A stretch of DNA of 25,246 nucleotides, from the IMG/VR virus record IMGVR_UViG_3300030333_004022, positions 1-25,246 of that record; one strand, written 5' to 3'. The position numbers and the translations under genes are program-made. This document shows positions 4,869 to 23,490 of this stretch, piece after piece. Below the pieces are notes generated by a model. The model was given only the letters and a program-made list of their open reading frames with translations, had not been told where the DNA came from and searched no databases. Source of the DNA: a virus. Position 1 is the first letter of the stretch; each line of letters starts with the position of its first letter.

Positions 4869-6734
4869 TTAATCTACACTATTTTTTGATTTATATTCAT
4901 CATATTCTTTACTAATCTCATCTATTTTTTTATCCTCTGAGATTATATCTTTTGCTTTCTTATTACCCATAGATTTAACAACTGCATCATAATGTGCTAA
5001 AGCTAATGGTGATTGGAACTTACTTTTTTTAGTTCTTTTTAAGTTCTCATGTCCTAATGGGTCACGACCTCTTGCTCCAGTTTCTTTGGAATATTTATTC
5101 ATTTCCTTTGGTCTACCAGCACCATCCCATCCGCCTTCTGGTGAACCACCATCATCTTGGAATACTGAACCAGATGAACTATCTTCATCATATCCACCTG
5201 ATTGCATATCACTTGGTGTTCCAACTGAATCACCACTTTGAGCTGGGTCATTACCCTCTTGTTCTATTTGGTCATGTCTGAACTTCTGTTTTTGGTCTTC
5301 TATTATTTGTTTTTTGATTTCTTCTTTTTCTTCATTTGAAAAATTGAACACATTATCATATACCCATTCAGTAGGTAAAATCTTATCACCAATCATATCA
5401 CGAGCTAATCCAACTTTTTGTCCCCATAATTCTACTTTTTCTTGGTCATACATTGTAGATGGATTGGTTAGTTCCAAATCAAAGTTTACCAATTCTTCAT
5501 CGGTGTATCCTTGTGAATATAAGTGAACAACTGCAATTTTTGTCAATTCAGAAATAACAATTCTTTGTATTCTTTCTATGGTTCTGGCAAATCTTACATC
5601 TTCTGCTGCAAGTGTTGCTTTACCACCGACATTTTCATCAAATCCTAAGAATGCCTTTGGAACTCTTAATGCTGCTAACATTTTATTTTTTAAATATTCA
5701 ATATCATCAGTTGAATCATAATCTAATCCACCTAATTCTGAAACTTCTGTTCCACTATCTCCACCACGAACAGGCATAAAGAAATCTTCGGTTAAGTTTT
5801 GTATATTATATTTTAAATTATACTCACCAGTACTTTCATCCATAAATGGTGTCTTTTTCATTTTGTTGATAATTCTTTGCATATAATTGTCAACTTCGTT
5901 TGGTGGTATGTTTCCAATATCTATTTTATAAACTCTTTTTGATGGTGCTCTCATAATTCTATGAATTAACATCGCATCTTCCATAAGAGTTAATTGTTTC
6001 CATGTCTTACGAGCTGCCTCCATCATACTTTTACCATATGGTAAGAAATTACTATCATTAGTTAATCTAAAGTGTGCAATTTGGAAATTTTCAAACTCAA
6101 TACTTTTTCCTTGACTTTGTTTATTATGTTGACCAAGATAAGGATGTGCTCCCTCAATACTTTCTAAGAAGAACTTAGTATAATAAGGATTTTCTGGGTC
6201 TTCTCCCTCTGCTCTTACGACTTCATAAGGTGACAATGGAATAACATTTGTAATACCATACTTTTCACTAACATCTAAATAAAGGTAAAAGTCACCATAC
6301 TTACACATATTACGAACCCAAGGCCATAAGGTGAACTCAATATTCATAATATCATAAAATAAATTATGTAATATCTCTTTTATGTTTTCATTGTCTGATT
6401 TAATTTCTAATACATCACCATATTCTGATTTCATCGTTGATTCATCAGAGTATATATCTAATGCACTTGATATGATACTATCACTATCCATTGATTCATA
6501 ATCTTTGAATAGTGCAAGTCTTGCAGCCATAACTTGATGGACGGTGGAATATCCAGTTCCAACTAAATCCAAATTACTATGTAACTTTGAATATCTGTCA
6601 ACAAGATGTGACTTAACTTGTGTTTGTATTTGGTCTGTATCAGCAATCTTTAATTTACGACCACCGACATTTCTTACGATTACATTTGTACTAAATAATC
6701 GTCTCAGTCTTCCAAATAATGTTGTATCTGCCAT
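4869..6734 (-). CDS. Portal vertex protein, T4 gp20-like
   Basis: A 621-residue portal protein that would form the dodecameric DNA-entry ring and nucleate head assembly. The body (about 1-470) has the features of T4 gp20-like portals: an N-terminal GRLRRLFSTN segment, the SSALDIYSDEST block (about 85-100), WPWVRNMCKYGDFYLYLDV, a long helical region around the KVYKIDIGN segment, and LRVPKAFLGFDE followed by KATLAAEDVRFARTIERIQ. It is longer than T4 gp20 (524) because of a C-terminal extension (about 490-620) rich in Gly, Ser, Asp and Gln, then a basic helical tail. The start has a clear GTGAGG ribosome binding site and lies 12 bases after the terminase stop. T4 places sheath and tube genes between terminase and portal; here they are absent from that position. 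Confidence 0.93.
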   Translation of the reverse strand: MADTTLFGRLRRLFSTNVIVRNVGGRKLKIADTDQIQTQVKSHLVDRYSKLHSNLDLVGTGYSTVHQVMAARLALFKDYESMDSDSIISSALDIYSDESTMKSEYGDVLEIKSDNENIKEILHNLFYDIMNIEFTLWPWVRNMCKYGDFYLYLDVSEKYGITNVIPLSPYEVVRAEGEDPENPYYTKFFLESIEGAHPYLGQHNKQSQGKSIEFENFQIAHFRLTNDSNFLPYGKSMMEAARKTWKQLTLMEDAMLIHRIMRAPSKRVYKIDIGNIPPNEVDNYMQRIINKMKKTPFMDESTGEYNLKYNIQNLTEDFFMPVRGGDSGTEVSELGGLDYDSTDDIEYLKNKMLAALRVPKAFLGFDENVGGKATLAAEDVRFARTIERIQRIVISELTKIAVVHLYSQGYTDEELVNFDLELTNPSTMYDQEKVELWGQKVGLARDMIGDKILPTEWVYDNVFNFSNEEKEEIKKQIIEDQKQKFRHDQIEQEGNDPAQSGDSVGTPSDMQSGGYDEDSSSGSVFQDDGGSPEGGWDGAGRPKEMNKYSKETGARGRDPLGHENLKRTKKSKFQSPLALAHYDAVVKSMGNKKAKDIISEDKKIDEISKEYDEYKSKNSVD

Positions 6735-6746
6735 TTTTTACCTCAC

Positions 6747-8318
6747 TTACAAGAGCCAATTTAGTGACTCTTTTTCTTTATCCTTTCCTAAGTCCCAATC
6801 CCAATAATCATTTGTCGTATCTTGTGGTGTATAAACACCCTCTTGGTTCATCATAGTCAAGGTTTTTTTTGTTAATTCAATTCCCTCTGTTCGTAATCTT
6901 AATGCAGTATCACGAACCCATAAACCGATTGCAAATGACATAACTAAATCATCATTATATCCTACCATTGCTTCGGCTCTGTTATTAACATATACAAATG
7001 TCAATAATTCATCTATTAATCTATTAGAACGAACCAAAACTGATTCGTCTCTAAAATATTCCTCAAGTTTTGCAATAATTAATGGTCTTGTTTTCATAGT
7101 GGTAGTAAATCCTGCCACCATATTTCTCTCAGTTGTTCTATATTTGTTTGTCAACTGATGTTGAACATCAACATATCGTAAATCTTTACTCGTATAAAAT
7201 AGATTAGGATAATCCCTATCTATTACTTGTTGGATGGTTGCCCAACCAATATTATTGTTTTCTATAATTAGTAAGGCATCGTTATATTCTGTTGCAATAC
7301 TCACTAACATATTACCAAAATCTTTAGTATTTATTCTACCTTTGTATTCTGCCACTTGTTCAACACTATCAATATCAATAACATGAAAAGCACTATAATC
7401 AGCACTATCTCCACGACCAACATCTGCACATACTACATAATTCTTTGTATAATTTGGTGGTTCCCAAATCCAACAATTATTATCAATACCTCTTTTTTCT
7501 AATGGGTCTTTACATTCTTTCTTTCTTAAATTTTCTAATAATACTGCATCAATCACACCAGTACCAGATGTCAAGAAGTCACAATCACACTCTTGTGATG
7601 CACCACTTGGCCCTAATAAAACATCTTGTTCTCTTCTCCATTCATCATCTCTTTCTGGGTGAACTGACCAATGTAATTTAATGAAGTTGAACATACCTCG
7701 TCCTTCTTCGGCTTCTACCCAAGTTTTATGAAACCAATTACCAACTCCATTTGGTGTTGAGAGTGCAATACATTGACCACCAGTGGTTAAAGTTGCCTGA
7801 GATGCAGTCCATATATCATCAATCTTATCAATGAATGCTGCCTCGTCCAATATTAATAATGATAGAGCTTCAGAACGAGCTGCTTCAGGTCCTGATGCAA
7901 CTGCCTTTATCTGTGAACCATTAACATATCGTAATGATAATTTATTATCCTCAACACATCGTTGTTTTAACCAACTTGGTAGATTTGCGTGCATAACACG
8001 AACCTTTGTAACTAAATTCTTTGCAACATCTTGTTTAGTTGCAATTACCAATATATTTTTATCTTGATGAAAGGTCATCATCCATAATGAATATCCTGCT
8101 GTCAATGTAGATATACCTAACTGACGAGCTTTCAAAATAATGTTCATACGATTATCTTCAAACTCTTCAATTGTTTTTTCTTGAAAGTCATATAAATCAA
8201 ATGGAACTTTACCATGAATTGGATGTTGAATTACACAATACTTTTTTAAGAAGTATGCAGGGTCTTTTGCAGACTTAATATACTCTTGTTTAATTACATC
8301 TTTTAATTGTTCTGCCAT
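6747..8318 (-). CDS. terL: Large terminase subunit, T4 gp17-like ATPase/nuclease
   Basis: A 523-residue DNA-packaging motor that hydrolyses ATP to pump DNA through the portal and cuts concatemers. Visible motifs: Walker A-type KARQLGIST (about 63-71), Walker B and catalytic Glu in LLILDEAAF (about 154-162), the coupling motif ALSTPNG (185-191), and the RNase H-like nuclease acidic residues in CADVGRGDSADY (Asp299), IIENNNIG (Glu353) and YNDDLVM (Asp456/457). All catalytic positions are present, so it looks active. It is shorter than T4 gp17 (610), lacking part of the N-terminal region. The ATG overlaps the previous stop by one base (TAATG). The small subunit is not obvious; the zinc-ribbon protein at 8992-9558 is a positional candidate. 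Confidence 0.96.
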   Translation of the reverse strand: MAEQLKDVIKQEYIKSAKDPAYFLKKYCVIQHPIHGKVPFDLYDFQEKTIEEFEDNRMNIILKARQLGISTLTAGYSLWMMTFHQDKNILVIATKQDVAKNLVTKVRVMHANLPSWLKQRCVEDNKLSLRYVNGSQIKAVASGPEAARSEALSLLILDEAAFIDKIDDIWTASQATLTTGGQCIALSTPNGVGNWFHKTWVEAEEGRGMFNFIKLHWSVHPERDDEWRREQDVLLGPSGASQECDCDFLTSGTGVIDAVLLENLRKKECKDPLEKRGIDNNCWIWEPPNYTKNYVVCADVGRGDSADYSAFHVIDIDSVEQVAEYKGRINTKDFGNMLVSIATEYNDALLIIENNNIGWATIQQVIDRDYPNLFYTSKDLRYVDVQHQLTNKYRTTERNMVAGFTTTMKTRPLIIAKLEEYFRDESVLVRSNRLIDELLTFVYVNNRAEAMVGYNDDLVMSFAIGLWVRDTALRLRTEGIELTKKTLTMMNQEGVYTPQDTTNDYWDWDLGKDKEKESLNWLL

Positions 8319-9566: not shown

Positions 9567-12500
9567 CTATCCAAATTTCAAACTACCAAGTATTTGATTG
9601 ATTGGTGCAAATGCTCCTGTAAATTTATAAACTTTACCTTTGTATTTGAACACTATACCCTCACTTGGAACAATTGATTTTAATCCACCAATTGCATTTA
9701 GTTTTTGAATTTGTGTTTTTAATTTTTTTAGTTTCTCTATGTTACCTTTTTTACTTAAATCCATATAGGCCTTATTCATTTCTTTACGAACTTTTTGAAC
9801 TGCCATATCAGGATTTGCAGCCATAAATCCACTTATGTTTTTTAATATTTGTGCACCCACATCAAAGAACAACACTTCAAATGGTTTAATATTATCTTTA
9901 AAAATTTTATTATGGTCAAATTTATCTGTTTTTAATATCCAATCTAAAAATTTTTCATTATCACCAAAATCTTTTTTAATTTGTTGTATCTTATAACTCT
10001 TATCAAAGTATGCCCATCTCTTTACTAACTTTGCAAATTGTGTAGGTTTTAACTTTACTTTAAATTGTTTTGATGCATTATAAATATATTCTCTCCAATA
10101 TGATTCATGATACATACCCAATGTATCTTTATCACTTAATGCATATTCTGATTGTAGTTTTTTAATTCTATTCATATACATTGTTTTTAATTTATCAAAA
10201 TTTTGATGTTTTGGTACTTTCAAAAAGTTTGGTTTACCTATTTTAAATGTCTTCTGAACATTCTGATTTACTTGTTTAATCATACCTGCCAACATACGAG
10301 CACTATCTTTAGGTTGACCTACTGGTCTTCCACTATCATCATATTCTAATGTTCCATGAAATACTATTTCTGCCACATCATAATCTATTACATTTGCTGT
10401 TTGTGGATACATAACCTCTAAATTCATCCATCTCTTTCCATTACCAAATACTTTTTCTTTTTGTTTATCGGATAATGAACCGATTGCTTTTTCTAAATCT
10501 TTCATTGCACCTACAAAAGCTTTCTTGATTTCTCCTCTACCTTTAAAGATAGATGCAATTCCCTTTGTATCTGGTGCAGTTTTACCAAAATTCTTTAAGT
10601 GTCCTTTGTTACGAGCTGCCTTTAACTTCCCATCAATCCAACTCACCATTAGATTTTGTCCATCAAGTTTCTCTGTAACTCCATCTTCTCTATCTAACTT
10701 TCCACCGATACCATTAATAACTATCTGTTTCAAATCTGAAAATGTCAAATTATTATCATCAAATGGATGTGCCATATGTCCATATGCTCCACCCTCAATC
10801 AATAATTCAATATCTTTCATAAATGACTCTTGTATATCATCAATTGCATCACCCATAGAATCATCACCTGGAGCTAAATCAAGTTCAATTGCCCTTTGTG
10901 TATTTTGGTCTTGTGTTTGAACACCTGGTAGTGCAGGAGCTTCAACAGGAACACCTGTAACATCTCTTTCATTATCTGTTAGTCCAAACCATTTTACAAT
11001 TTCAAATTCTAATCCACTAACTACTTTTTCTAACCATTTTTTATATGCTTTAACTGGGTCTTCACTTGGAAATCTTTCACCATATGGCCCTGCACCTCTT
11101 CTACCATATGCAACCGTAGGGACTTTATCCATTCTTGTTGTAAAATCCAAACCAGGGTCATTTGCATTTTTACTTAAAATATAACTAACTAATTCCCAAC
11201 CAAGACCATCATCAGATGAATACATACTTTTAATCCATTTTTTTGAATGTTTTTTATAATCACTAAATCCATCGTAAAATGTTGGTGGGCCGTCATCAAT
11301 TGGAAATTGATTAGTAGTTGAATTTTCTTTTAATATATCTGTTAAATCATTATGAATAATAAAATTATCAAACACTTCAAATAATTTTCTAAACTTATTA
11401 GTCATCATATTATAAACACCTTTATCAAAATATCCAAAGGCCTGTTTAAATAATTTAGGTCTATCTTTATCATCTATTTTAGGTGAACCTAATAAATTTC
11501 TCATTACGGTTCCACTTACCTCTTGACCACCCACTTTTATAGATTGGTGTGGGGCAGTTAGTATATATCCATGTTCTTCATATCCTACTAAATTTTTCTT
11601 ATTCTTTTTGTAATCTTGATAATAAGTTTTTCCACCACTTTTTTTCTTTCCACCCTTTAATCTTCCTGCATCTTTCTTACCAAAAATATAAACAACTGCA
11701 GTAGTTTCTGGGTCAAACTTTTTTAATGTATTATTTGCCACATATGGTGTTTTTTCTTTTACAATTCTATTCTTTGGAACACCAATTTTTACCATGTGAC
11801 GAACTTTTTCTGTAAAGTTCATTGGGTGTCTTGGTGGTTTTTTAATATCACTTGTTGTTATGTAGGCCTCATCTACTTGTGATTCTAACCACTTATAAGT
11901 CTTATAATGATGTGGGCCGAATGGTTGGAATCTACCACCATAAATACCAATTACTTTTTTGATTTTTGACTTTTCTTCAGTTACTTTTTTATATCCACTC
12001 TGTTTATCTGTTTTATTTTTCTTTACACCTTTTCTACTTGGTGATGGTATAACTCCAGCTGGTGCACCAAACTCTTCATTAATTACACCACCTCGTTCAT
12101 TAAACCATTTTCTAAATTGTCCAGGTTTACCTACGGTTACTTTTCCTTTTGCAATCTTTTCCATTTTTTTTATAAATGGGTCTCTATAACCTGGATTTTT
12201 ATACATCAAACTATCTATTAGAAAAACATCTTGAACATGAATTTGATTTACAATGATTTCATTCCAACCATATTCTGATGGTTTATCTTTTTGACTTAAT
12301 ATGTGTCGTTTGATTTGTGGTTTATACTTTCTTATTACTTTGTAACACATATCAATATATTTTTTAATCCACTTTGCCTTTATTTTATTTAATTCTTTTT
12401 CATATATTGGTTGGACTAAATCATATTTCGGTGTTCCATCGGGTTTTCCATCACTATCTGTAAATTGAAGTTCTGGTCTTTTACCAATTTTATCTCTTAA

Positions 12501-14339
12501 ATCTCTTTCAATAACATACCAAGTATCATAATCTATTTTTAATTTCTTGATACCATTTTGTATTTCTTTATCCATCTTACCACCAGCAACTTTACCTGCT
12601 AAATATAATGGTGAAACCCATCTACGACCTGTTTTGTCTGGGTGAGTTTGCATATCTCTTGTGCTCGCTACTAACAAACTACCCTCTAATTGAAATACAA
12701 CACCACCTTGTGTTTGTATTCCTCGTCCTTTTGCAAGTTTTTCACCTTTATCCACTTTGGTAAATGTAGATAATGCACTTTTCTTACCAATGATTCTTCC
12801 AATTTTTTCTGCACCTTCCACACTACTAACATGAAATACACTTACTCTTTCTCTACCCAAAATACTTTGCATAAATTTAGTAGTTAGTGGAACATGTTTT
12901 GCATAATGACCACCAAACAATGAACTGAATGCACTTTTAGTATGAACTGAATCAAATCCTGCCTTTCGTTCATTTAATATATTTTCATTCATATATAATT
13001 TCATTTCTATATCTTTTATCTTATCACCAATTTCTTTACCTTTTAATCCTACAAATTCTGTTCCACCACCCTTTACTGATAATTGAAATGTTGATAATTT
13101 TTTAAAATCTTTACCAATTAATTTACCATACTCTTGGATTTGTTTTGGTGTTAATGTAGTTTTCTCTTGTGCCTTTTTAACATTATAGATATTCTTTGGG
13201 TTAAAGTTATTCAAATAAACTAAAAATGTTATATTATTTGACTCTTTAGAACTATACTTTAATTTGTTTAAAATTTTTGGTAATTTAGTGACATCATTTT
13301 TTCTAAAAATAGTTGCAAGGAACAAAATATAATCCTTGACATTTGGATAAGGTTTTTGTATATTTAATTGTGGGAAAATTTGTTTTGTAAATCTAAACTT
13401 ATCAAGTGCCTCCATAAATAATTTAGATGATTTTCCTTTTTTAATTCCTTTTATAAACTCATCTCTAATTCTTTCTGCACTAACACCTTTCAAACTTGGA
13501 TTGATTAATAAAGCCTTTTCTGTTTCTTTATCCATCTTACCACCAACCACTGCTTGAAATCTAAGTGCTCTTAGTTTTCTCAATGGGTCTTCATCAAATC
13601 TTCTTTTTGCACTTCCTACCGTTCTAATTAACTTATTTTTTAAATCTTCTAATCCACCTGTCAAGTCAACCACTTCACCTCTACCAATATCAAAGAATAA
13701 AGAATTAATTGTCAAATCTCTTCTTTTTACATCACCTTGAATATCTGAAAAATCTACTGCTTTAGGTCTTCTACCTTTACCTATATCTTTTCTAAATGTT
13801 GCAATCTCATGTCCACCCACAATTACCACACCAAACTTTTTACCAACTGAATATGTTTTAAATCCACCACTCTTTGCAATCTTTAATACTTCATCTGGTT
13901 TTGCATCAGTTGCCATATCAAAATCTTTTGGTTTCTTACCAAGTATCGCATCACGAACTGCACCACCTACGATATATAATTGTTTTTTATTTTTTTTGAA
14001 TAATTGATGTAATCGTTTTACATCACCAGGAACATTTAAACTAACTTTATTTTCTGTGACTTCAAACTTCTTTACTCCTCTCATATCACCATCAGGTGAT
14101 ACTGAATCTTTATCAGTAGTTTTATGTGGTAGTAGTTTTTTGTCTGTCTTTACTATTCTAAACTTTAATGCAGTCCTATTATTAATAAGTAAATCACCTT
14201 TTTCATTATAACCTATTGATTTAACTTTTACTTTTTTATTCTTAAAACGGCCCATTAAGATAGTATCCCCAATCTCTACAGGAATTTTTATATCTTCTAA
14301 TAAAGGTTTAACTAACCATTCTGTAAGTTTATTACTCAT
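9567..14339 (-). CDS. Giant multidomain nucleotidyltransferase: CCA-enzyme-like + ART-like + NMNAT/cytidylyltransferase-like + ligase-like
   Basis: One uninterrupted 1590-residue protein with an AGGAG ribosome binding site. From the N-terminus: a short leader with LLE at 13-15; a beta-rich SH3-like domain (about 20-65, GDTILMG and ALKFRI); a class II CCA-adding/poly(A)-polymerase-type nucleotidyltransferase (about 105-320) with GGAVRD at 125-130, DFDMAT at 139-144 (catalytic DxD), RRDLTIN at 206-212 and RRFDEDPLR from 246; a possible ADP-ribosyltransferase-like fold (about 498-710) with FHVSS at 502-506, STFTK at 524-528 and a candidate Glu694 in NEIIVNQI; a HIGH-superfamily nucleotidyltransferase (about 796-955) with GGRFQPFGPHH at 801-811 and VSGTVMR at 941-947; and a C-terminal ligase-like domain (about 1180-1590) with EKLDG (Lys1224), NLEVMYP (1306-1312), EGIVFKY (1560-1566) and KFTG (1572-1575). 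The ART call is tentative; the other three are well supported. The combined substrate is unknown. RNA end-repair or NAD-linked modification is inferred. Confidence 0.93.
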   Translation of the reverse strand: MSNKLTEWLVKPLLEDIKIPVEIGDTILMGRFKNKKVKVKSIGYNEKGDLLINNRTALKFRIVKTDKKLLPHKTTDKDSVSPDGDMRGVKKFEVTENKVSLNVPGDVKRLHQLFKKNKKQLYIVGGAVRDAILGKKPKDFDMATDAKPDEVLKIAKSGGFKTYSVGKKFGVVIVGGHEIATFRKDIGKGRRPKAVDFSDIQGDVKRRDLTINSLFFDIGRGEVVDLTGGLEDLKNKLIRTVGSAKRRFDEDPLRKLRALRFQAVVGGKMDKETEKALLINPSLKGVSAERIRDEFIKGIKKGKSSKLFMEALDKFRFTKQIFPQLNIQKPYPNVKDYILFLATIFRKNDVTKLPKILNKLKYSSKESNNITFLVYLNNFNPKNIYNVKKAQEKTTLTPKQIQEYGKLIGKDFKKLSTFQLSVKGGGTEFVGLKGKEIGDKIKDIEMKLYMNENILNERKAGFDSVHTKSAFSSLFGGHYAKHVPLTTKFMQSILGRERVSVFHVSSVEGAEKIGRIIGKKSALSTFTKVDKGEKLAKGRGIQTQGGVVFQLEGSLLVASTRDMQTHPDKTGRRWVSPLYLAGKVAGGKMDKEIQNGIKKLKIDYDTWYVIERDLRDKIGKRPELQFTDSDGKPDGTPKYDLVQPIYEKELNKIKAKWIKKYIDMCYKVIRKYKPQIKRHILSQKDKPSEYGWNEIIVNQIHVQDVFLIDSLMYKNPGYRDPFIKKMEKIAKGKVTVGKPGQFRKWFNERGGVINEEFGAPAGVIPSPSRKGVKKNKTDKQSGYKKVTEEKSKIKKVIGIYGGRFQPFGPHHYKTYKWLESQVDEAYITTSDIKKPPRHPMNFTEKVRHMVKIGVPKNRIVKEKTPYVANNTLKKFDPETTAVVYIFGKKDAGRLKGGKKKSGGKTYYQDYKKNKKNLVGYEEHGYILTAPHQSIKVGGQEVSGTVMRNLLGSPKIDDKDRPKLFKQAFGYFDKGVYNMMTNKFRKLFEVFDNFIIHNDLTDILKENSTTNQFPIDDGPPTFYDGFSDYKKHSKKWIKSMYSSDDGLGWELVSYILSKNANDPGLDFTTRMDKVPTVAYGRRGAGPYGERFPSEDPVKAYKKWLEKVVSGLEFEIVKWFGLTDNERDVTGVPVEAPALPGVQTQDQNTQRAIELDLAPGDDSMGDAIDDIQESFMKDIELLIEGGAYGHMAHPFDDNNLTFSDLKQIVINGIGGKLDREDGVTEKLDGQNLMVSWIDGKLKAARNKGHLKNFGKTAPDTKGIASIFKGRGEIKKAFVGAMKDLEKAIGSLSDKQKEKVFGNGKRWMNLEVMYPQTANVIDYDVAEIVFHGTLEYDDSGRPVGQPKDSARMLAGMIKQVNQNVQKTFKIGKPNFLKVPKHQNFDKLKTMYMNRIKKLQSEYALSDKDTLGMYHESYWREYIYNASKQFKVKLKPTQFAKLVKRWAYFDKSYKIQQIKKDFGDNEKFLDWILKTDKFDHNKIFKDNIKPFEVLFFDVGAQILKNISGFMAANPDMAVQKVRKEMNKAYMDLSKKGNIEKLKKLKTQIQKLNAIGGLKSIVPSEGIVFKYKGKVYKFTGAFAPINQILGSLKFG

Positions 14340-14345
14340 TAACTC

Positions 14346-15002
14346 CTACCATTTTCTACAAGACCAATAACGAGCTTTATGTCTTGGGCCAGGATTTTCA
14401 CAATTATGTCTTGCTCTAAATGACTTACGGGCATCAGGGTTAGATTTTTTGATTCTCATAGTTTTTTCACCACCCTTACCTTTATGTCCAAAATTAACCT
14501 TGACTACATTACCCTTTGGATTCTTTACATATACTTTGAACTTCTTTACATCACCAGTAGTTGGTTTACCAAGTTTTACTTTTCTTCCTTGATATTCTGC
14601 CTCGTTCAAATCTTTGGTTCTAATATATTCAAAGGTATATCCATGTCCTTTACCATCAACTTCATAATATATTTCTGTAACTTCTTTTACACAATTAGGA
14701 ACTTTTTTTCCATCTTTATCTTTCATTCCTATTTGTTTGTATCCTACCCAACATGGGTCTCCATCTTTTTTCTCAATCTTTAAAGTTTTTGGATATCCCT
14801 TTTCACCAGGTTTTGCAGGTTTTTCACCTCTTTTTCTTTTTGCGTGAATATTGTGCCAAAGACCTTTATTCTTTTTCTCTTCAAGCCTTTCTTCTAAATC
14901 TTTTTTTAATAACAATTTATCTTTTTTTGATAATCGTTGTTTTTTCTTACCAATTTCACTTGGTTCATCTAAATGTTTTCCAAATTCAGTTATATTTTTC
15001 AT
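14346..15002 (-). CDS. Basic phage protein with C-terminal [10 protein letters not shown]...RYWSCRKW domain
   Basis: A 218-residue, strongly basic protein. Three blocks are visible: a central [20 protein letters not shown] segment (about 43-62), a cysteine-containing [20 protein letters not shown] segment (about 83-102), and a C-terminal domain with [30 protein letters not shown] and RYWSCRKW (about 172-218). From memory, blocks like these recur in proteins of marine T4-like phages, often joined to other domains, but no function is known. The start ATG overlaps the ferredoxin stop (ATGA), with AAGGAG 9 bases upstream. It immediately precedes the 1590-residue protein, six bases away. A nucleic-acid-contacting or virion role is plausible from its charge. 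Confidence 0.85.
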
Positions 15003-15283
15003 TGAAAGAACTCCTTATTAATATTAATATATTTTACCCATTCTTCAGGTAATTCATCTTCATCATAAATTGCTTCTACTGGACACTCTGGTTCACATGC
15101 ACCACAATCAATACATTCATCAGGGTCTATGTATAATTGTTTACCATCTAATGTATCTAATCCAGAAACTTCTGCTCCTGCTCCATCTTTATCTATTGGC
15201 CCATGAATACAATCTACTGGACATACATCCACACATGCCGTATCACATGTTCCAACACAAGGTTCTGCTATTATATATGCCAT
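14999..15283 (-). CDS. 7Fe-type ([3Fe-4S]/[4Fe-4S]) ferredoxin
   Basis: A 94-residue small electron carrier. The N-terminal motif [21 protein letters not shown] (Cys9, 13, 17, 21, 25) and the C-terminal [12 protein letters not shown] (Cys57, 60, 63, 67) match seven-iron ferredoxins. By analogy with Azotobacter FdI, Cys9/17/67 would hold a 3Fe-4S cluster and Cys21/57/60/63 a 4Fe-4S cluster. Cys13 stands where many relatives have Lys. A Gly/Asp-rich loop of about 20 residues (28-48) separates the halves. The tail [14 protein letters not shown] is the usual one for this type. It is acidic and soluble, and looks functional. The redox partner is unknown; the radical SAM protein in the same operon is a candidate consumer. 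Possibly host-acquired. Confidence 0.93.
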
Positions 15284-16387: not shown

Positions 16388-17254
16388 TTATTTTCTCCTA
16401 TTAAGTAGTTTTTGTTTTTCAACCCACATTTTTCCAAGTTTGTTTTTGATAGGTTTGTTAACAAATTTTCTAATAACTTTAGTAACCAATGGAACAAATT
16501 TTGCCTCCGCTTGTTTGTCGTTTAAGTGTTTTGAATTATCCACTATCACGAAGTTGTTTTTAAATAATGCTTGAAAAGAACCAATATTCTTCTGAACATC
16601 TTTCCAACTCTTTTCTAATAATTTTGGTGGTAATATTCTATCTCTTTCTTGATTTCTTTTTTGTGCCACCTCTAATGATGTGTTAACCATTACCATATAG
16701 GTATCGTATCCCTCATCTTCTAATTCTTTTTTCAAAGAACTAATTTTACCAAATTTATGTCCAGTTCCATCTATAATCATTCCTAACTTACCTTTTCTAT
16801 ATAATTTCATTCTTTGTGCAGTAAGTTCTTTTGAAAATCCTCTGAATCCACTATAATCATCATCATCTGGATTTGTAAGTTGATTAAATACTTCATCTGG
16901 CATTTTGTCTAAATCAGTACCGAATCCAAATTTATGTAATAAGTGTTTCAACTCTTTATCTGAGTTTACCATTTTCATACCACTCATACTAATATTAAAC
17001 TTATCAGGTATACCAAATATTTTTTTCGCAACATAAGTTTTACCACTACCTGGCCCACCTGCAAGAAAGACTGCCTTAAAAATACCTTTGTCTTGAATAC
17101 CCTCTGCAATCATTACTTTAAGTTTTTTTGCCAAATCTTTTTTATAGGCATCATAATCTTCAGGTTTTACAAATCCTTTATATCCACCATAGGATTCAGA
17201 ATTTGCACTCTTTCCTGTTATATTTGATTCTAATAAATCTTTTAGTTTAATCAT
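16388..17254 (-). CDS. P-loop kinase, zeta-toxin / polynucleotide-kinase-like
   Basis: A 288-residue protein with an N-terminal leader (MIKLKDLLES), a basic helical segment (about 30-55) and a P-loop phosphotransferase core: FLAGGPGSGKT (Walker A, about 63-73), NSD (97-99), IIDGTGHKF (about 160-168) and NQERDR (about 201-206, a probable lid/arginine motif). The layout suits zeta-toxin-type or nucleic-acid 5'-kinase-like P-loop enzymes, not a AAA+ ATPase. The C-terminal ~50 residues are basic. A GGAG ribosome binding site lies six bases before the ATG. Substrate is unknown: a nucleotide-sugar (zeta-like) or RNA/DNA end (Pnkp-like) are both possible, the second interesting because of the ligase-like domain in the same operon. 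Confidence 0.87.
   Translation of the reverse strand: MIKLKDLLESNITGKSANSESYGGYKGFVKPEDYDAYKKDLAKKLKVMIAEGIQDKGIFKAVFLAGGPGSGKTYVAKKIFGIPDKFNISMSGMKMVNSDKELKHLLHKFGFGTDLDKMPDEVFNQLTNPDDDDYSGFRGFSKELTAQRMKLYRKGKLGMIIDGTGHKFGKISSLKKELEDEGYDTYMVMVNTSLEVAQKRNQERDRILPPKLLEKSWKDVQKNIGSFQALFKNNFVIVDNSKHLNDKQAEAKFVPLVTKVIRKFVNKPIKNKLGKMWVEKQKLLNRRK
16394..16399 (-). promoter_or_regulatory. Ribosome binding site deciding the endolysin start
   Basis: AGGAGA on the minus strand, seven bases before the ATG at 16386. It lies inside the last codons of the upstream kinase gene and supports the 160-residue form of the endolysin over the 197-residue open frame. Confidence 0.8.
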
Positions 17255-17289: not shown

Positions 17290-19212
17290 TTAAGTTACGG
17301 AAGTTTCGTATCCTCTGTTTCTTCTTCCCCACCACATATTTATAGTGCACCACTTCTTTACATCTGAATTATAGTTTTCAGAATTGAATTCATAGATATG
17401 ACCACCATTTTTGATAGGTTTATTTTCAAAAATAACCTCTTTGATATTAAAATTAAATGGAACTTTCTTTGGATATTGTTCAAATGGATTAGTACAAATC
17501 ATTTTTTGGAACAAAAGTAAGTCTTCAAGTAAAGATACATCTACTTTTTTAAACTCACTAAATAAAAAACTTCTAAGATTCTTATCAAATTCTTCACGAT
17601 TAGTCACGATTCTGATAGATGTTGCCTCTTCATAATCCCAATAATATTCTCCTGTAGTTTCTTCTATTTTTCTACCCCAAAGTGTTTCTTTTTTTAAAAC
17701 TTTTGTTAAGGTATCTTTAGTAGTATTCATTTCTTTTCCTAAGAAAGTATCAGGATTCTTTTTCATCCAATTATAAAACTTAGTATAAAATTCTTTATAA
17801 GATATATCATGTGTTGAACTTAATACTCTTGAAATGTGTTGTGTAAATCCTAAAAAATGACTAAACATAAACATCCATCTCCAAATAGAGGCCTCTATAT
17901 ATTCCTCTCTATTCATTGTTTCACTACCAACTACCATAAATTCTTTTTCTTTTTTTAACATTTCAGGATAATCATGATGGAAAAATGCAGGTGTGGTCTC
18001 AACAACATCAATACCATATTCTTTTACATAACTTGGTTCAAAAAATGGTGTATTAGGTAATGCAGTCATTGGATACACTCCAACATAATCATGAAATTCC
18101 ATATCCATTATTTGAAATATACCTTCTTTAAATGATTCAATTGTTTCTTTTGGTAATCCCAAAATTAATTCCACATAACTTATCAATTCTTTATCTTTAT
18201 ATAAATCAAAAAATTCTTGTAATTTTCCACTATCAACATTTTTTCTTCTAATTGCCTTTAATACATCAGGATTCATAGATTGTAATGCAATTGTAATACC
18301 TTTCATCATACCTGCTTCTGTAAGTAAATAGGCATATTCAACAACCTTATCTGCCTTTGACTTTGCCCAATCTACACGAATATTATCAGGATATCCAGTT
18401 TCTTTTTTTAACTTTGTCATATACTTTACAATATCAAGGTGTTCTTTCAATAAACCAAAATTAGAATCTGCATTATAGAAAAATTCTACTTTGTTTTTAG
18501 ACAACCAATCCAATTCTTTAAATACTTTTTCATTTGTTTGTCTTGCAATCTTCTGAAAATATTTATCACCTATTTCACAAAATGTGCATTGATAAGGACA
18601 ACCACGAACACTTTCTATTGTACCCTCAAATGCATAGTCATGGTCTTTAATTTTTACTAAATCATCAAATAACCCATCCAAGTAAGGACTTGGCATTGAA
18701 TCAATATCTTTTAATCTTTCTCTTGGTGGTGTTGTGATTAGTTCGCCTAATGGTGGATTAATTGTAACACCATTTACTTTTGTCCAATCTTTATCTATAA
18801 GATATCGTAATAATATATCTTCAAATGTTAACTCACCCTCACCATGAACCAATATATCAATACCTGGATTATCTTTACAAAATTGTTTACACCTATCACC
18901 TTTTGGTGTTCCTTGTCCACCAAATATAACTAAACAATTAGGATTTATTTTTTTTATTTTTTTTATGATTGAAGTATTAACGATTGAATTCCATACAAAA
19001 TTTGAAACACCGATTATATCAGAATCTTTTATTTGATTTATAATCTTATTTTCGTCTTGACGATAATATATCCAATCTTCCATATTGAAAGAATAATTTT
19101 TTTCTATAAGTGGATTAAGTTTGCAATATCCCCATATCAAACCAGTAGAATATGGTAATTTTACTTGATTTGCGGTAATATCTGATAACTCAAGGAAACT
19201 TATTTTGTACAT
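17290..19212 (-). CDS. Radical SAM protein with N-terminal cobalamin-binding-like domain
   Basis: A 640-residue protein with the architecture of class B radical SAM enzymes. Residues about 1-150 resemble a B12-binding-like Rossmann domain (IIGVSNFVWN, VIFGGQGTP at about 95-103, VHGEGELTFEDIL). The radical SAM core follows from about 195 with CPYQCTFC (Cys205, 209, 212) for the 4Fe-4S cluster and a later TIALQSMNPDVLKAIRRKN block typical of the core. The C-terminal third is unassigned. A classical B12 DxHxxG motif is not seen, so cobalamin use is uncertain. The gene overlaps the previous one by 13 bases and ends the sugar cassette. The reaction is unknown: methylation or rearrangement of a sugar or lipid would fit the neighbours. 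The encoded ferredoxin could supply electrons. Confidence 0.9.
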   Translation of the reverse strand: MYKISFLELSDITANQVKLPYSTGLIWGYCKLNPLIEKNYSFNMEDWIYYRQDENKIINQIKDSDIIGVSNFVWNSIVNTSIIKKIKKINPNCLVIFGGQGTPKGDRCKQFCKDNPGIDILVHGEGELTFEDILLRYLIDKDWTKVNGVTINPPLGELITTPPRERLKDIDSMPSPYLDGLFDDLVKIKDHDYAFEGTIESVRGCPYQCTFCEIGDKYFQKIARQTNEKVFKELDWLSKNKVEFFYNADSNFGLLKEHLDIVKYMTKLKKETGYPDNIRVDWAKSKADKVVEYAYLLTEAGMMKGITIALQSMNPDVLKAIRRKNVDSGKLQEFFDLYKDKELISYVELILGLPKETIESFKEGIFQIMDMEFHDYVGVYPMTALPNTPFFEPSYVKEYGIDVVETTPAFFHHDYPEMLKKEKEFMVVGSETMNREEYIEASIWRWMFMFSHFLGFTQHISRVLSSTHDISYKEFYTKFYNWMKKNPDTFLGKEMNTTKDTLTKVLKKETLWGRKIEETTGEYYWDYEEATSIRIVTNREEFDKNLRSFLFSEFKKVDVSLLEDLLLFQKMICTNPFEQYPKKVPFNFNIKEVIFENKPIKNGGHIYEFNSENYNSDVKKWCTINMWWGRRNRGYETSVT

Positions 19213-20603
19213 TTTTCTTCTATCTCTTTGAATAAATTATTAAATTGTTTATTTCTTTCACTACCTAATTTCATAAAATGATTATAATTGTGAATTAGAA
19301 TTTCTTTCATATCAGAATACCATTTTACCATTTCTTCTTCAGGTATATTTTGCAATCTTACTATTTCATCAAGAATCATATTGTATCTTTTTTTATTATC
19401 AACTACTCTATCATATGATTCATCAATAAATGGATGAAAAGTTTTAAATCCAAGTCTTTTTAATTCACCAATTGTATTTGGTCTTCCAAATACTATAAAA
19501 GGATGGAAATTACCAACACATTTCCAAGTCTTTTCTGTTATATAATCACTTCTTCTAAAAAAATTAGATTCTGTTACTACACTATAATAAGTATTTAACC
19601 AAGGTTTTTTAACATCTCCACGAAATCCATGAATTTTGGATAAGTCTTCATGGTCAATCATTCTTTTTTTCATTTTAATAACTTGTTTGATATACTTTTC
19701 AAATTTTTCTCTATAGGTTTGCTCATCATCATAAATCATCTTGTATTCTTCAATGTAGGTATCAATTCTTGTTGGAAATCTAAAATCACCATCTAATGTA
19801 AATTGAAAACTAACTAAATTCTTATCTAAAATACCCAATCTATGTAATTCTGCAACCAACATTACACGATGTGGATGCATTCTTCTATTAAAACACAAAA
19901 ACTTATTATCTCTTTTTTTACCTAAACTATTTTTAAAATCACCTAATGATACAGAACTAAGTTTTCCTTTAGTCTCCTTAGATTCAAACTTATCAATACC
20001 TATATTATACTCATGTCCTTTTTCGTATAAAAAGTAGTGATAGTTCATAACATTAAATCTGTCTGTAGTTTGCATATTCTTTTGGTGCCAAGTGTGATGT
20101 TGTTTTTTTATACCATGGTTACCACTTGTTAATATAATTATCTTTTTCATTGGTAAATTATTTGCTTCACAAATCTGTGCCAATCTTTCAAAAAATACAT
20201 CAACTACTAAACCCTCATGAACCATTGTAATTAATATATAACCATTTGATTGTTTTAACTTACTCATTGTAGTAGGTGGAATTGCCTGTGTAAAATTCCA
20301 ACCATCATATAATGAACCCTTTTCTTGATTTATACCAAATGATTTTTGAAAATCTCCAAAAATTTCTACAGGATATACCCAAGTATCTTCTGGTTTAACA
20401 TCTTTTATGTTTGTTATCATATCTTCATAATAATTCCTAAAACTTGAATTATAAACATGCCAAGGTTCCCCAAATTTTTCTCTAACCGAAACTTCTGTAT
20501 GGTCGTAGAATCCATTATGTTCATTCATAACATACCTTTTAATTTCAAGGTGACATGCATTAGGTATCAGATATGGTACATTTTGGTCAAATACTATTTT
20601 CAT
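19200..20603 (-). CDS. Glycosyltransferase-like protein, GT10 (fucosyltransferase)-like C-terminal half
   Basis: A 467-residue protein. The C-terminal half has KFLCFNRRMHPHR (about 234-246), YYSVVTESNFF (339-349), ITEKTWKCVGNFHPFIVFG (355-373) and LGFKTFHPFIDESYD (384-398). The TEK-x-W segment followed by a Pro-containing strand resembles the donor-binding part of GT10-type GT-B fucosyltransferases. The N-terminal ~200 residues are unassigned. Its C-terminal half is clearly related to the partial protein at the right edge (24427 onward), so the cassette carries two paralogues. A TTGGAG ribosome binding site and an ATGA overlap couple it to the upstream gene. Donor and acceptor are unknown. 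Confidence 0.82.
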   Translation of the reverse strand: MKIVFDQNVPYLIPNACHLEIKRYVMNEHNGFYDHTEVSVREKFGEPWHVYNSSFRNYYEDMITNIKDVKPEDTWVYPVEIFGDFQKSFGINQEKGSLYDGWNFTQAIPPTTMSKLKQSNGYILITMVHEGLVVDVFFERLAQICEANNLPMKKIIILTSGNHGIKKQHHTWHQKNMQTTDRFNVMNYHYFLYEKGHEYNIGIDKFESKETKGKLSSVSLGDFKNSLGKKRDNKFLCFNRRMHPHRVMLVAELHRLGILDKNLVSFQFTLDGDFRFPTRIDTYIEEYKMIYDDEQTYREKFEKYIKQVIKMKKRMIDHEDLSKIHGFRGDVKKPWLNTYYSVVTESNFFRRSDYITEKTWKCVGNFHPFIVFGRPNTIGELKRLGFKTFHPFIDESYDRVVDNKKRYNMILDEIVRLQNIPEEEMVKWYSDMKEILIHNYNHFMKLGSERNKQFNNLFKEIEEKCTK

Positions 20604-21427
20604 ATTAACTCCAATATTTCTGGTTTTATAATTTTGTTAAAATATGTCTTATGTCCATCCCATTCTACATGTAGATTATCATCCCAGAATGGTAAGTCAT
20701 GTTCTTTTGCATATTCATATAAACCATCATAATCATTTGAAAAAACAAAATTTTCAAAATCAATTTGTTCAAATAAATGTTCAGTCTCTTTATATTGTTT
20801 ATGTAGAAACTCTCCATCTTTATTAGTAAATATATTTTTCATAGTATGAAATACATATTTTATTTTATGTAATTTACAAAAATATTGTACTCTTAAAATA
20901 GACTCAAAAGTATTAATGAAAGAATATTCTGTAGTATAATAATTTTCATAATAATTAGTAAACCAATCTGTATATTCTTTAAATGCATATCCATCTTTAT
21001 TTGGAAATCCACCACTTCTAAAATATCCCCAATTTCTATTTTCTTTATTATAGGCGGTATTCATTCCTTCTCCTAATCTTAAAGGTTCAGTATTACCCTT
21101 GTGTTTAGTTAATCCTGGCCATTTATAAGTTTCCTCTAATGAACCAAATAAATCAGTTCGTATTGGGTCACTCCACATAACTGAAACTAAAATATCTTCT
21201 TTTTTTATATTAGGTATTTTTAAAACATTAGATAGTGTATAAATAACTCTTCTTGATATCAAAGAATTACCAGATGCAGGTTCACCTGTATGATAATAAA
21301 ATGGAAAATCAAAATATTCTTCTATTGCATTTGTCCAAGTTTTTTCTTTTTCTTTCATTATAGGTACATCAGCTTTCTTTGAAAAACTACAACCACCCGT
21401 AATAATTCTATATTGGTTATCTGTCAT
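20600..21427 (-). CDS. SGNH/GDSL-hydrolase-like protein
   Basis: A 275-residue protein that resembles SGNH-fold esterases/acyltransferases: the N-terminal TGGCSFS supplies the block I Ser, EPASGNSL the Gly-Asn of block III, and DNLHVEWDGH near the C-terminus the D-x-x-H pair of block V. No signal peptide, so it probably acts in the cytoplasm, for example adding or removing acyl groups on a sugar. The frame also has an ATG at 21442, but that lacks a ribosome binding site. The ATG at 21427 has GGGGA eight bases upstream and reduces overlap with the upstream gene to 11 bases, so I prefer it. Family call is moderate because the motifs are short. Confidence 0.78.
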   Translation of the reverse strand: MTDNQYRIITGGCSFSKKADVPIMKEKEKTWTNAIEEYFDFPFYYHTGEPASGNSLISRRVIYTLSNVLKIPNIKKEDILVSVMWSDPIRTDLFGSLEETYKWPGLTKHKGNTEPLRLGEGMNTAYNKENRNWGYFRSGGFPNKDGYAFKEYTDWFTNYYENYYTTEYSFINTFESILRVQYFCKLHKIKYVFHTMKNIFTNKDGEFLHKQYKETEHLFEQIDFENFVFSNDYDGLYEYAKEHDLPFWDDNLHVEWDGHKTYFNKIIKPEILELI

Positions 21428-22757
21428 TGTAATAATCCCCATATTCTACTAAAATTGTTGAACCATCTCTATTGTATGCTTTTGTAAACTCATTAAATAT
21501 ATCTTCTGTTTTATCAAGCTCAACAATTTTGACTTCAGTTAACATCTCTTTTAGTTGTTTAATATAATTCTGAGTATGTTGTACTCCACCATTTAGTGGT
21601 TCACGAGAACCAACTGCAGTTCGTATTATAACTTTTGGTTTCATTTGACCATTAGTCATATCTTGAATCTTATCTAAATGGTTTACTAAACTATCCATAC
21701 ATCTAAGTAGGAAGTCCATTCTTGGAAAACAACTAATTGGAACATGTCCATTTAGTGCCATACCTGTACTCATTCCCATTTGTATTTCTTCAAACACAGG
21801 TAATTCTAATCTCTTCTCATCATCAATATCTTGTAATGTTCCATAAATAGAATTACCACTATACTTAACTGATTGTCCCATAAAAATAGTATCCTCTTTA
21901 TCACTTAACCATTTCATAGAACGATTTAATTCATCTTTATAATTCATAATAATTGGTTCTCCATTATCATCTTCTACTATTTGAAACTTCATACTCATAT
22001 CGTGAAATCCAAATGCAGTTTGTTTTCTATGTGGAAGAATAGATGTTGTATGATTACCTAAAGAAAACTCACTTGTTAAACTTGGTGATGCAAACTTTAA
22101 ATCATATTTTTTTAATTCTTCATAGTTCTCATGTATCAATAAATCTTCATTTTGTTTAAATACCATACCACTTGATTCATCAAATCTATAAATGATTCCA
22201 TTTTTACTCTTTGCATTAGTAAAATAATCAGATGTAGATTTACAAAACTTTTTAGACCTTAATGTTAGTCCACCATTGAAATGTCCAATGTCTTCTATAA
22301 ATTCAGAATCATCATTTTGACACCCATCAGATATTGTGTATACTAAGTCATAATCAAGAAACTCATCTTTCCATTTATCAATATTGGTTATAAAACAATC
22401 CCATTGAATCAATAATACATGTGGTGCATCAAAATATTTATGTAGATATTTTAATACAAACTCTCCATAATCATGATAGTCCATAGTACCTTTCAATTCA
22501 ATCCAATTGTGTTCTTCACATGGATATGGTGGTACAAGTGGTGAAACAATAGCAAAACTTCTAAAAGGTAATTTCTCCTCAAACTCTTTTAGTACTTCAA
22601 TACTTTTTTCAAGTCTTTGTTGTGAAACTGAATCACCACACCCATCAATTAATCTAACATCAATATCATATTTATAATCTTTATTTTTATAAACATGATT
22701 TATATCAGGATAATAATTGTCTTGCCAATAATATCCTTTTGTATAGTCTTTAATCAT
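21417..22757 (-). CDS. Fusion of DUF5672-like (glycosyltransferase-type) domain with transketolase pyrimidine-binding / E1-beta-like domain
   Basis: A 446-residue two-part protein. Residues about 60-180 resemble DUF5672, a domain frequent near glycosyltransferases: HVLLIQWDCFI (113-123), W and F at the DEFLDYDLVY segment, and GHFNGGLTLRSKKF (158-171). Residues about 268-446 resemble the pyrimidine-binding half of thiamine-diphosphate enzymes such as pyruvate dehydrogenase E1-beta: MNYKDELNRSMKWL, FMGQSVKYSGN, LPVFEEIQMGMSTGMALNG with Glu323 at the position of the conserved TPP-activating Glu, MDSLVNHLDKI and GGVQHTQNY (390-398). No pyrophosphate-binding partner (E1-alpha-like) lies in the window. 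The start overlaps the upstream stop by 8 bases with no clear ribosome binding site, so it is probably translationally coupled. Substrate unknown. Confidence 0.85.
   Translation of the reverse strand: MIKDYTKGYYWQDNYYPDINHVYKNKDYKYDIDVRLIDGCGDSVSQQRLEKSIEVLKEFEEKLPFRSFAIVSPLVPPYPCEEHNWIELKGTMDYHDYGEFVLKYLHKYFDAPHVLLIQWDCFITNIDKWKDEFLDYDLVYTISDGCQNDDSEFIEDIGHFNGGLTLRSKKFCKSTSDYFTNAKSKNGIIYRFDESSGMVFKQNEDLLIHENYEELKKYDLKFASPSLTSEFSLGNHTTSILPHRKQTAFGFHDMSMKFQIVEDDNGEPIIMNYKDELNRSMKWLSDKEDTIFMGQSVKYSGNSIYGTLQDIDDEKRLELPVFEEIQMGMSTGMALNGHVPISCFPRMDFLLRCMDSLVNHLDKIQDMTNGQMKPKVIIRTAVGSREPLNGGVQHTQNYIKQLKEMLTEVKIVELDKTEDIFNEFTKAYNRDGSTILVEYGDYYNDR
21436..21440 (-). promoter_or_regulatory. Ribosome binding site supporting the start of the SGNH-like gene
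   Basis: GGGGA on the minus strand, eight bases before the ATG at 21427. The alternative ATG at 21442 lacks any comparable site, so the downstream start is preferred. Confidence 0.5.
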
Positions 22758-23490
22758 AAAGATTTATTCTTTCTCTTTTCATTTGACCACCTGGATTAAA
22801 GTGTGCATCTTGTCTAAGATAACTACCAAGTGCAGCTCTTCTCCATTTAGTCTCTGATTTATTAGTCTCTGAACCATGAATTACATGTGAATGTAAAAAT
22901 ATAACATCACCTGAATTCATTGGTAGATATATTTTTTCATATCTATCTGTCCAAACACCATCAACCCATTCTCCTGGTATGTGACAAGGTTTACCTCGTT
23001 CATTTCTCCAATCGTCTGGATTTGTTAATAGTCTATCCTCATCAATATTGATTGGTAGACATGATTCCACTTGTGAACCAGGATAAACATATAGACATCC
23101 ATTCTCTTCATCACTATCATCAATGGCACAAGATGCATTTATAATGTCACCTCGGTTTGCATGTGAGTAAAAAATGTTTTGGTGAACATCTCTACCCAAC
23201 TCACCTGGTGGTTTAAAATACATCCAAGTTTGTAATCCATCAACTTTACCACCAATTAGTGTTTCAAGTATTTCTAAAGTTCGTGGGTGTCTCCACAACT
23301 TATCAAATAACTCTGAATCTCTATGTGTATATGCATATGGTCTTGTGTTATCATCTTCTTCTGAAGTTTTCCTCAATTCAATCAATCTATTACCCTCTTC
23401 TCTATACTCATCCATTACTTCTGTAGAGAAAATATTTTCTACATAGTAACCATTCTCTTTGTAAAAAGAAAGTATTTCATTATTCGTCAT
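22750..23490 (-). CDS. Phytanoyl-CoA dioxygenase (PhyH)-like Fe(II)/2-oxoglutarate protein with altered iron site
   Basis: A 246-residue protein of the PhyH superfamily, which hydroxylates or otherwise oxidises small molecules using Fe(II) and 2-oxoglutarate. Recognisable blocks are VHQNIFY (102-108), ENGCLYVYPGSQ (129-140), LPMNSGDVIFLHSHVIHGS (189-207) with the distal His205, and Arg217/Arg218 for 2-oxoglutarate. Family members carry H-x-D at the first block; here it reads His103-Gln-Asn105, so the carboxylate ligand is replaced. The Asn codon (AAC, 23178-23176) is clear in the sequence. It overlaps the epimerase gene by 11 bases with CAGGAG upstream of the ATG. Its place in a sugar cassette suggests a sugar or lipid substrate. 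Activity is uncertain. Confidence 0.88.
   Translation of the reverse strand: MTNNEILSFYKENGYYVENIFSTEVMDEYREEGNRLIELRKTSEEDDNTRPYAYTHRDSELFDKLWRHPRTLEILETLIGGKVDGLQTWMYFKPPGELGRDVHQNIFYSHANRGDIINASCAIDDSDEENGCLYVYPGSQVESCLPINIDEDRLLTNPDDWRNERGKPCHIPGEWVDGVWTDRYEKIYLPMNSGDVIFLHSHVIHGSETNKSETKWRRAALGSYLRQDAHFNPGGQMKRERINLYD

What the first reader, a model, noticed from the sequence alone, without database searches (positions are those of the whole stretch)
9567..14339. Four nucleotide-handling domains fused in one 1590-residue phage protein
Seen: CCA-adding-enzyme motifs (GGAVRD, DFDMAT, RRDLTIN), a HIGH-type adenylyl/cytidylyltransferase site (GGRFQPFGPHH, VSGTVMR) and ligase-type motifs (EKLDG, EGIVFKY, KFTG), plus a possible ADP-ribosyltransferase fold (FHVSS, STFTK, Glu694), in one open frame. 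Known: these families add CCA to tRNA, make NAD or CDP-type products, use NAD, and seal nucleic-acid ends via a covalent Lys-AMP. Inference: a single-chain RNA end-processing or NAD-linked modification machine, for example repair of tRNAs cleaved by host defence. I know of no characterised protein with this combination.
Basis: partly seen in the sequence, partly recalled or inferred. Interest (0 to 1): 0.82.

Follow-up and report, generated by a model that had tools for sequence, protein, structure and literature searches.

The report
Phage head-packaged enzyme polyprotein
This giant gene of a T4-like virus of bacteria appears to encode a string of interchangeable enzymes, made as one chain, loaded into the virus head and cut apart there by the virus's own protease so that several tools can enter the host with the DNA; the cutting is predicted from sequence, not shown.

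Summary
The 1590-residue ORF is real. Of the four domains named, the CCA-adding-type nucleotidyltransferase is firm, the HIGH-type nucleotidyltransferase is supported through relatives, the ligase is supported by a weak fold match with the catalytic lysine in register, and the ADP-ribosyltransferase is unconfirmed.

The better reading is a cargo polyprotein, not a single-chain machine. The window carries a T4-type prohead protease (gp21), whose published motif is L/I-X-E. Among about 180 relatives the ends of the chain are nearly fixed and the middle modules are swapped (about 30 complete arrangements). Module borders carry [LIVMF]-x-E in 44 of 56 distinct contexts, against 22 of 1339 control positions. 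The same ART-like and kinase modules also occur alone behind a 10-residue leader (MIKLKDLLxE) shared by 34 otherwise different ORFs, like T4's capsid-targeting sequence. Strict [LI]xE is depleted inside modules (0.52 of expectation).

I infer packaging, gp21 dicing and injection. No virion protein data were available. Multidomain injected 'polyvalent proteins' are known (PMC5512222); what differs is processing in trans by a T4-type prohead protease, and the RNA/NAD-handling content.

The parts
9567..14339 (-). Whole ORF, 1590 aa: predicted cargo polyprotein
14295..14339 (-). Residues 1-15 MSNKLTEWLVKPLLE|: predicted capsid-targeting leader; site after Glu15
   Evidence: leader shared by relatives; leader-type starts concentrated in head region
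14052..14294 (-). Residues 16-96: small N module (DIKIPVEIGDTILMGRFKNKKVKVKSIG...), ends in EVTE|
   Evidence: same module found elsewhere after other [x]E borders and in HTVC008M gp128
12969..14051 (-). Residues 97-457: CCA/poly(A)-type nucleotidyltransferase module, ends in NILNE|
   Evidence: PF01743 6.5e-30, PF12627 3e-7; phrog_2244 1.8e-57; border motif 6/6 contexts
12075..12968 (-). Residues 458-755: ART-like module (identity unconfirmed), ends in GGVINE|
   Evidence: conserved family; stand-alone ORFs MIKLKDLLNE|...; no fold support
11976..12074 (-). Residues 756-788: short basic module EFGAPAGVIPSPSRK...GYKKVTE|
   Evidence: same short module in many relatives in other orders
11325..11975 (-). 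Residues 789-1005: HIGH/NMNAT-like nucleotidyltransferase, ends in DILKE|
   Evidence: PF01467 1.1e-3, above cut-off in relatives; NMNAT best in PDB
10794..11324 (-). Residues 1006-1182: unknown domain, ends in ELLIE|
   Evidence: border motif after residue 1005 and 1182
9570..10793 (-). Residues 1183-1590: RNA-ligase-like module; Lys1224 at 10668-10670
   Evidence: invariant motifs; RNA ligases top the VIA list with Lys in register; stand-alone with leader in LR756500
1312..1935 (-). Prohead protease gp21, predicted cutter
   Evidence: PF03420 5.8e-26; phrog_207 3.5e-51
16388..17254 (-). Separate kinase (zeta/AAA_33) ORF with leader MIKLKDLLE and internal MIAE| before the kinase; the same kinase is a polyprotein module in relatives
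   Evidence: PF06414 3.4e-9
14346..15002 (-). Modular small head-region ORF with internal KEVTE| and LNE| borders
   Evidence: modules recur in other ORFs; related to HTVC008M gp131 by eye

Best explanation
The ORF encodes a cargo polyprotein of a T4-like phage. A 15-residue N-terminal leader ending in LLE acts as a capsid-targeting sequence and brings the chain into the prohead core. When the shell is complete, gp21 cuts after [LIVMF]-x-E sites in the linkers. This removes the leader and frees several enzymes inside the head: a CCA-type tRNA nucleotidyltransferase, an ART-like protein, an NMNAT-like nucleotidyltransferase, a domain of unknown function and an RNA-ligase-like protein. These leave with the DNA at infection, as T4 Alt and IPI do. 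The likeliest use is immediate repair or modification of RNA (tRNA ends, nicks) and NAD-linked host modification before phage genes are expressed. Shown here by sequence: modularity, site placement, leader sharing, presence of gp21. Inferred: packaging, cleavage, injection and substrates.
For: gp21 in the same head block. Swapped middle modules between near-constant ends: 68 architecture strings in 181 core ORFs, 33 with intact 5' end. [LIVMF]xE exactly at module starts in 44/56 dissimilar contexts against 22/1339 control positions. ART-like and kinase modules alone behind the same leader MIKLKDLLxE, which heads 34 dissimilar ORFs and is enriched in the head region. [LI]xE depleted to 0.52 inside modules, 1.18 in non-head ORFs. 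Capsid protein of the clade keeps LIDE|A or S at T4's FLTE|A site. Published T4 rule: L/I-X-E and 10-residue CTS (PMC9026906). Stand-alone ligase or kinase with other leaders in LR756500, HTVC008M and Melnitz.
Against: No virion proteome. The motif is short and also occurs inside folded parts (e.g. FDE250, VTE1223). Five of 12 ligase contexts have ELLLM instead of a site. Border motifs often have Val, Met or Phe at P3, wider than T4's L/I. Sequences are related, so p-values are inflated, and one context per family is circular. Interior depletion is absent in the NMNAT-like and kinase modules. Leader enrichment is not significant in contig G001 alone (3/23 against 6/66).
Confidence: 0.77

Rival explanations
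1. Polyvalent protein delivered whole: the leader is removed, as in Alt, and the chain stays intact in head and host, acting as one multidomain effector. The linker motifs are incidental or rarely cut.
For: Phage polyvalent proteins with many domains are known and some (N4 virion RNAP) are packaged unprocessed (PMC5512222).
Against: Motif sits exactly at module starts across dissimilar contexts and strict [LI]xE is depleted inside modules; the same modules work as free ORFs elsewhere.
Confidence: 0.12
2. Single-chain RNA-end-processing machine of the infected cell, not packaged.
For: Co-occurrence of CCA enzyme, ligase-like and nucleotidyltransferase domains.
Against: Position in the head-gene block beside terminase, portal and gp21; targeting-type leader; parts dropped, exchanged or encoded separately in relatives.
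Confidence: 0.06
3. Scaffold-type core protein: the modules are core filler that gp21 destroys or expels, and the enzyme domains are vestigial.
For: Many small basic modules with the same sites; T4 core proteins gp22, gp67 and gp68 are cut into several fragments (PMC9026906).
Against: Catalytic motifs of CCA are kept in 24/24 ORFs; ligase motif residues are invariant down to 35% identity; motif depletion inside modules.
Confidence: 0.05

Closest known systems
T4 internal head proteins Alt and IPI-IPIII (CTS + gp21 processing)
   Same: Short N-terminal leader ending in the L/I-X-E motif, gp21 in the genome, head-gene location; Alt is a packaged, injected ADP-ribosyltransferase (PMC9026906).
   Different: T4 cargo proteins are separate genes trimmed at their ends; here several enzymes share one chain with sites between them.
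Polyvalent proteins of phages and conjugative elements (Iyer et al. 2017, PMC5512222)
   Same: Many disparate, shuffled enzyme domains in one chain, predicted to be injected with the DNA; zeta-type kinase, ART and ParB domains also occur there.
   Different: There release is by embedded metallopeptidase or C-terminal assemblin-like peptidase; here no peptidase was found in the window chain and sites match a separate prohead protease. CCA enzyme plus ligase-like set is not described in the parts of that paper I read.
T4 gp22/gp67/gp68 core proteins
   Same: One precursor cut at several L/I-X-E sites by gp21.
   Different: Fragments of those are scaffold peptides, mostly expelled, not enzymes.
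RNA ligases Rnl1/Rnl2
   Same: Predicted nucleotidyltransferase core with motif I lysine in register.
   Different: About 250 residues, largely helical in the model, lie between motifs III and IV; 9-16% identity to T4 Rnl1/Rnl2 in the fold alignment; no activity known.
Cyanophage/pelagiphage DUF6267 proteins (e.g. HTVC008M gp127)
   Same: KxDG motif and a leader-like start MYNDLLVE|; hhalign pairs the two KxDG motifs.
   Different: Similarity not significant (E=0.11); single-domain ORF.

Membership tests
T4-type internal head protein (CTS, gp21-processed) | gp21-type prohead protease encoded by the same phage | tested here: met
   PF03420 5.8e-26
T4-type internal head protein (CTS, gp21-processed) | Short N-terminal leader ending in L/I-X-E | tested here: met
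   MSNKLTEWLVKPLLE|; shared leaders on dissimilar ORFs
T4-type internal head protein (CTS, gp21-processed) | Present in the virion and cleaved after the motif | not testable with these tools
   no virion proteome held; Table S5 of PMC6102473 not readable here
Polyvalent protein | Two or more domains of disparate activity in one chain, shuffled among relatives | tested here: met
Polyvalent protein | Phage late/head gene neighbourhood | tested here: met
Polyvalent protein | Embedded peptidase (common, not universal) | tested here: inconclusive
   no peptidase family in the window chain; an Ntn C45-type module in L033
Class II CCA/poly(A) nucleotidyltransferase | PolyA_pol head domain with GGxVRD, DxD, RRDxTIN and EDPLR motifs | tested here: met
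   PF01743 104.5 bits, cut-off 23; motifs in 24/24
Class II CCA/poly(A) nucleotidyltransferase | Full-length CCA equivalog score (NCBIfam) | tested here: not met
   NF009814 169 bits, cut-off 290: superfamily yes, CCA specificity not proven
HIGH (cytidylyltransferase-like) superfamily | PF01467 with HxGH and ISTSS-type motif | tested here: inconclusive
   19.6 bits against cut-off 21 in the window, above in relatives; first His replaced
Covalent nucleotidyltransferase (RNA/DNA ligase) superfamily | Motifs I, III, IV, V and ligase fold | tested here: inconclusive
   motifs invariant; RNA ligases top at Z about 5 on a model of pLDDT 65; Pfam RNA_ligase only 0.045 in L064
ADP-ribosyltransferase | ART fold with NAD-site residues | tested here: inconclusive
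   no Pfam hit; no PDB profile hit; model pLDDT 63; DarT rows only at background Z about 3

The most novel reading that the evidence does not exclude
Tailed phages use a true polyprotein strategy in which the capsid is the maturation compartment: a plug-in chain of RNA-, nucleotide- and NAD-handling enzymes is packaged by one leader, diced in trans by the prohead protease and injected as a multi-enzyme kit, in a T4-like lineage with hundreds of sampled members.
Probability: 0.65. Interest if true: 0.85.

Novelty: new variant of a known kind. Interest (0 to 1): 0.74.

Why it matters
If right, one leader and one protease explain how these phages deliver many early-acting enzymes, and prohead-protease sites become a readable code for finding injected cargo in uncultured phages. 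The module list (CCA enzyme, RNA-ligase-like, kinase, HD, ART-like, Ntn hydrolase) points to RNA repair and host modification in the first minutes of infection, which can be tested on related isolates. It also suggests natural multi-cargo chains for the T4-type protein delivery already used in the laboratory.

Tried and rejected
AlphaFold models of the ligase-like and ART-like modules had low confidence (pLDDT 65 and 63); Foldseek against PDB gave nothing significant. VIA-align helped for the ligase only. Profile searches of PDB sequences failed for ligase and ART and were weak for the NMNAT-like part. hhalign of the ligase alignment against DUF6267 (HTVC008M gp127) and T4 Rnl2 gave the motif I register but only E=0.11 and 0.053. 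BLAST HSP starts were too fuzzy to show motif enrichment strongly (about 2.4-fold near starts, 8-fold exactly at ends), so module seeds were used instead. The ART module has no tblastn match in the phage collection. Literature searches found no report of a gp21-processed enzyme polyprotein; the library is open-access only. Considered and set aside: a frameshift or assembly fusion (same layouts recur in independent contigs).

Full report
What is there. The window is bases 1-25246 of a 37.9 kb viral contig. On the minus strand it holds a T4-like head block: terminase (6747-8318; phrog_2), portal (4869-6734, by resemblance to Mel-JY01 and immuto gp20) and prohead protease gp21 (1312-1935; PF03420 5.8e-26; phrog_207). 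The ORF of the finding (9567-14339) lies a few small genes upstream of the terminase in the direction of transcription. It is a single intact frame. The closest isolates by terminase are Microcystis phage Mel-JY01 and the Flavobacterium phages immuto (54%).

Domains. Residues 121-325 are a class II nucleotidyltransferase (CCA/poly(A) type) with all catalytic motifs. Residues 799-883 match the HIGH nucleotidyltransferases weakly in this protein but above Pfam's cut-off in relatives, closest to NMN adenylyltransferases. Residues 1183-1590 keep EKxDG (Lys1224), a motif III Glu, EG(I/V)xF and YKxTG down to 35% identity. The low-confidence model places this region best on RNA ligases: P. pacificus ligase, Naegleria ligase, T4 Rnl2 and Rnl1 are among the top rows at Z 4.2-5.1 over about 90-110 residues at 4-4.8 A. 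The aligned ranges put model residue 56 (Lys1224) on the catalytic lysine (Naegleria K170, P. pacificus K92 and T4 Rnl1 K99 by the entry titles; Rnl2 K35 from my own knowledge). The Z is modest and unrelated folds follow at 4.2, so this is support and not proof. Residues 458-755 form a conserved family whose ADP-ribosyltransferase identity I could not confirm.

Modularity. A scan of IMG/VR found 302 relatives of the whole protein and at least 554 of the ligase module. The N-terminal leader with a small module, and the C-terminal block (NMNAT-like, unknown, ligase-like), are nearly constant; the middle is swapped. Scoring 18 modules gave 68 architecture strings in 181 core ORFs, 33 of them from ORFs with an intact 5' end (some contigs were fetched twice, many are cut, and divergent modules can be missed). 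Alternatives in the middle are the CCA enzyme, the ART-like module, a zeta/AAA_33 P-loop kinase, an HD domain (PF01966 1.5e-7), a C45-type Ntn hydrolase (NF040521 7.1e-7) and several small basic modules.

Sites at the borders. T4 gp21 cuts after Glu in L/I-X-E, and a 10-residue capsid-targeting sequence at the N-terminus suffices for packaging (PMC9026906). In this clade the major capsid protein has LIDE|A (or S) where T4 has FLTE|A. I took six module families, grouped their occurrences by dissimilar upstream sequence and asked whether [LIVMF]xE ends exactly at the module start: 44 of 56, against 22 of 1339 positions 4-15 residues away (Fisher p=2e-55). The seeds were placed behind the motif in one member each, so six of the 44 are circular; 38 of 50 remain. 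The kinase scores 13/13 and CCA 6/6. Exceptions are real: five ligase contexts read ELLLM|GGAYGH. Inside five enzyme modules the strict [LI]xE is seen 129 times against 248 expected from composition; non-head ORFs of the same phages have 1.18 of expectation, and control patterns inside the modules are not depleted to that degree. The effect is strong in CCA, ART-like and ligase-like modules, and absent in the NMNAT-like and kinase modules. Because the sequences are related, all p-values and z-scores are too optimistic.

Leaders. The ART-like module occurs alone as MIKLKDLLNE|AEPKFQSVHTKS...GGIINE and the kinase alone as MIKLKDLLFE|GVDDPGIFKAVF. Thirty-four dissimilar ORFs in the fetched loci begin with M[IV]KL[KT]...xE, followed by different sequence. 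In three long contigs, leader-like starts are concentrated in the head region, 17/75 against 11/181 (p=3e-4; p=0.008 without the contig on which the pattern was framed). In other phages the same modules carry other leaders: LR756500 MKFLKSYEEFLNENLILE|GGSYGH (ligase-like), HTVC008M gp129 MIPFILKE|GLYDPG and Melnitz MKTFAELQE|GVYDP (kinase). In Atu_ph07 gp53 the kinase again sits inside a chain behind EVTE|. That gene lies in a cluster (CDS 31-76) in which 29 proteins were found in virions (PMC6102473); whether gp53 is one of them I could not read.

Reading. The chain looks like T4's CTS/gp21 system extended to a polyprotein: one leader packages several enzymes, gp21 frees them in the prohead, and they leave with the DNA. 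Shown by sequence: the modular chain, sites at borders, shared leaders, and the protease gene. Inferred: packaging, cutting, injection and substrates. A tRNA or RNA repair role is plausible from the CCA enzyme, ligase-like, kinase and HD modules, and NAD-linked modification from the NMNAT-like and ART-like ones, but no substrate was tested.

Prior knowledge. Multidomain injected 'polyvalent proteins' of phages and plasmids were described in 2017, with the analogy to viral polyproteins and release by embedded peptidases (PMC5512222). ARTs near head genes are thought to be packaged (PMC9503650). I found no report of a T4-type chain processed in trans by gp21 into separate enzymes, nor of this domain set; the library searched is open-access only. 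I therefore rate it a new variant of a known kind.

Noticed in passing
window 3-1310 (-): Another modular head-region ORF beside gp21: starts with DUF3008 (2e-12) and holds several stretches divided by [VIM][NS]E motifs (IMNE, AVNE, SISE, SVNE), one of which recurs as a module of the polyprotein in relatives.
   Followed up: partly
L096 (Agrobacterium phage Atu_ph07 gp53-gp62): A tandem array of about ten ORFs that begin M[KR]W[A-Z]QL[TN]E-like and mostly carry a YRG[MI] motif, as in ADP-ribosyltransferases, inside a cluster rich in MS-detected virion proteins. Looks like a CTS-led ART family; Pfam gave no hit for gp54.
   Followed up: partly
L093:2245-3477 (HTVC008M gp127): DUF6267 protein (3.4e-135) with leader-like start MYNDLLVE| and a KWDGAP motif resembling ligase motif I; relatives in 465 phage records, mostly cyanophages.
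   Followed up: partly
L088:22429-23595 (Mel-JY01 WWT39312.1): Unannotated protein between the gp21 and capsid genes with YRAV, STT and ESE motifs typical of an ADP-ribosyltransferase; no Pfam hit.
   Followed up: no
L119, ORF starting MIKLKSLILE|KKLRVFDFDDTLVKS: The shared leader also heads what looks like a HAD-type phosphatase (DFDDT motif), a further candidate cargo enzyme.
   Followed up: no
window 14999-15283 (-): Small ferredoxin (4Fe-4S, PF00037 1.9e-10) in the middle of the head-gene block.
   Followed up: no
window 17290-24430 (-): A run of metabolic or surface-modification genes: B12-binding radical SAM, DUF5672, PhyH dioxygenase, NAD epimerase.
   Followed up: no
L089:7575-10322 (huge phage LR756508): Relative of the C-terminal block with canonical HxGH in the nucleotidyltransferase and a ParB-like domain (4.4e-4) in front, after INLIEE.
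   Followed up: no
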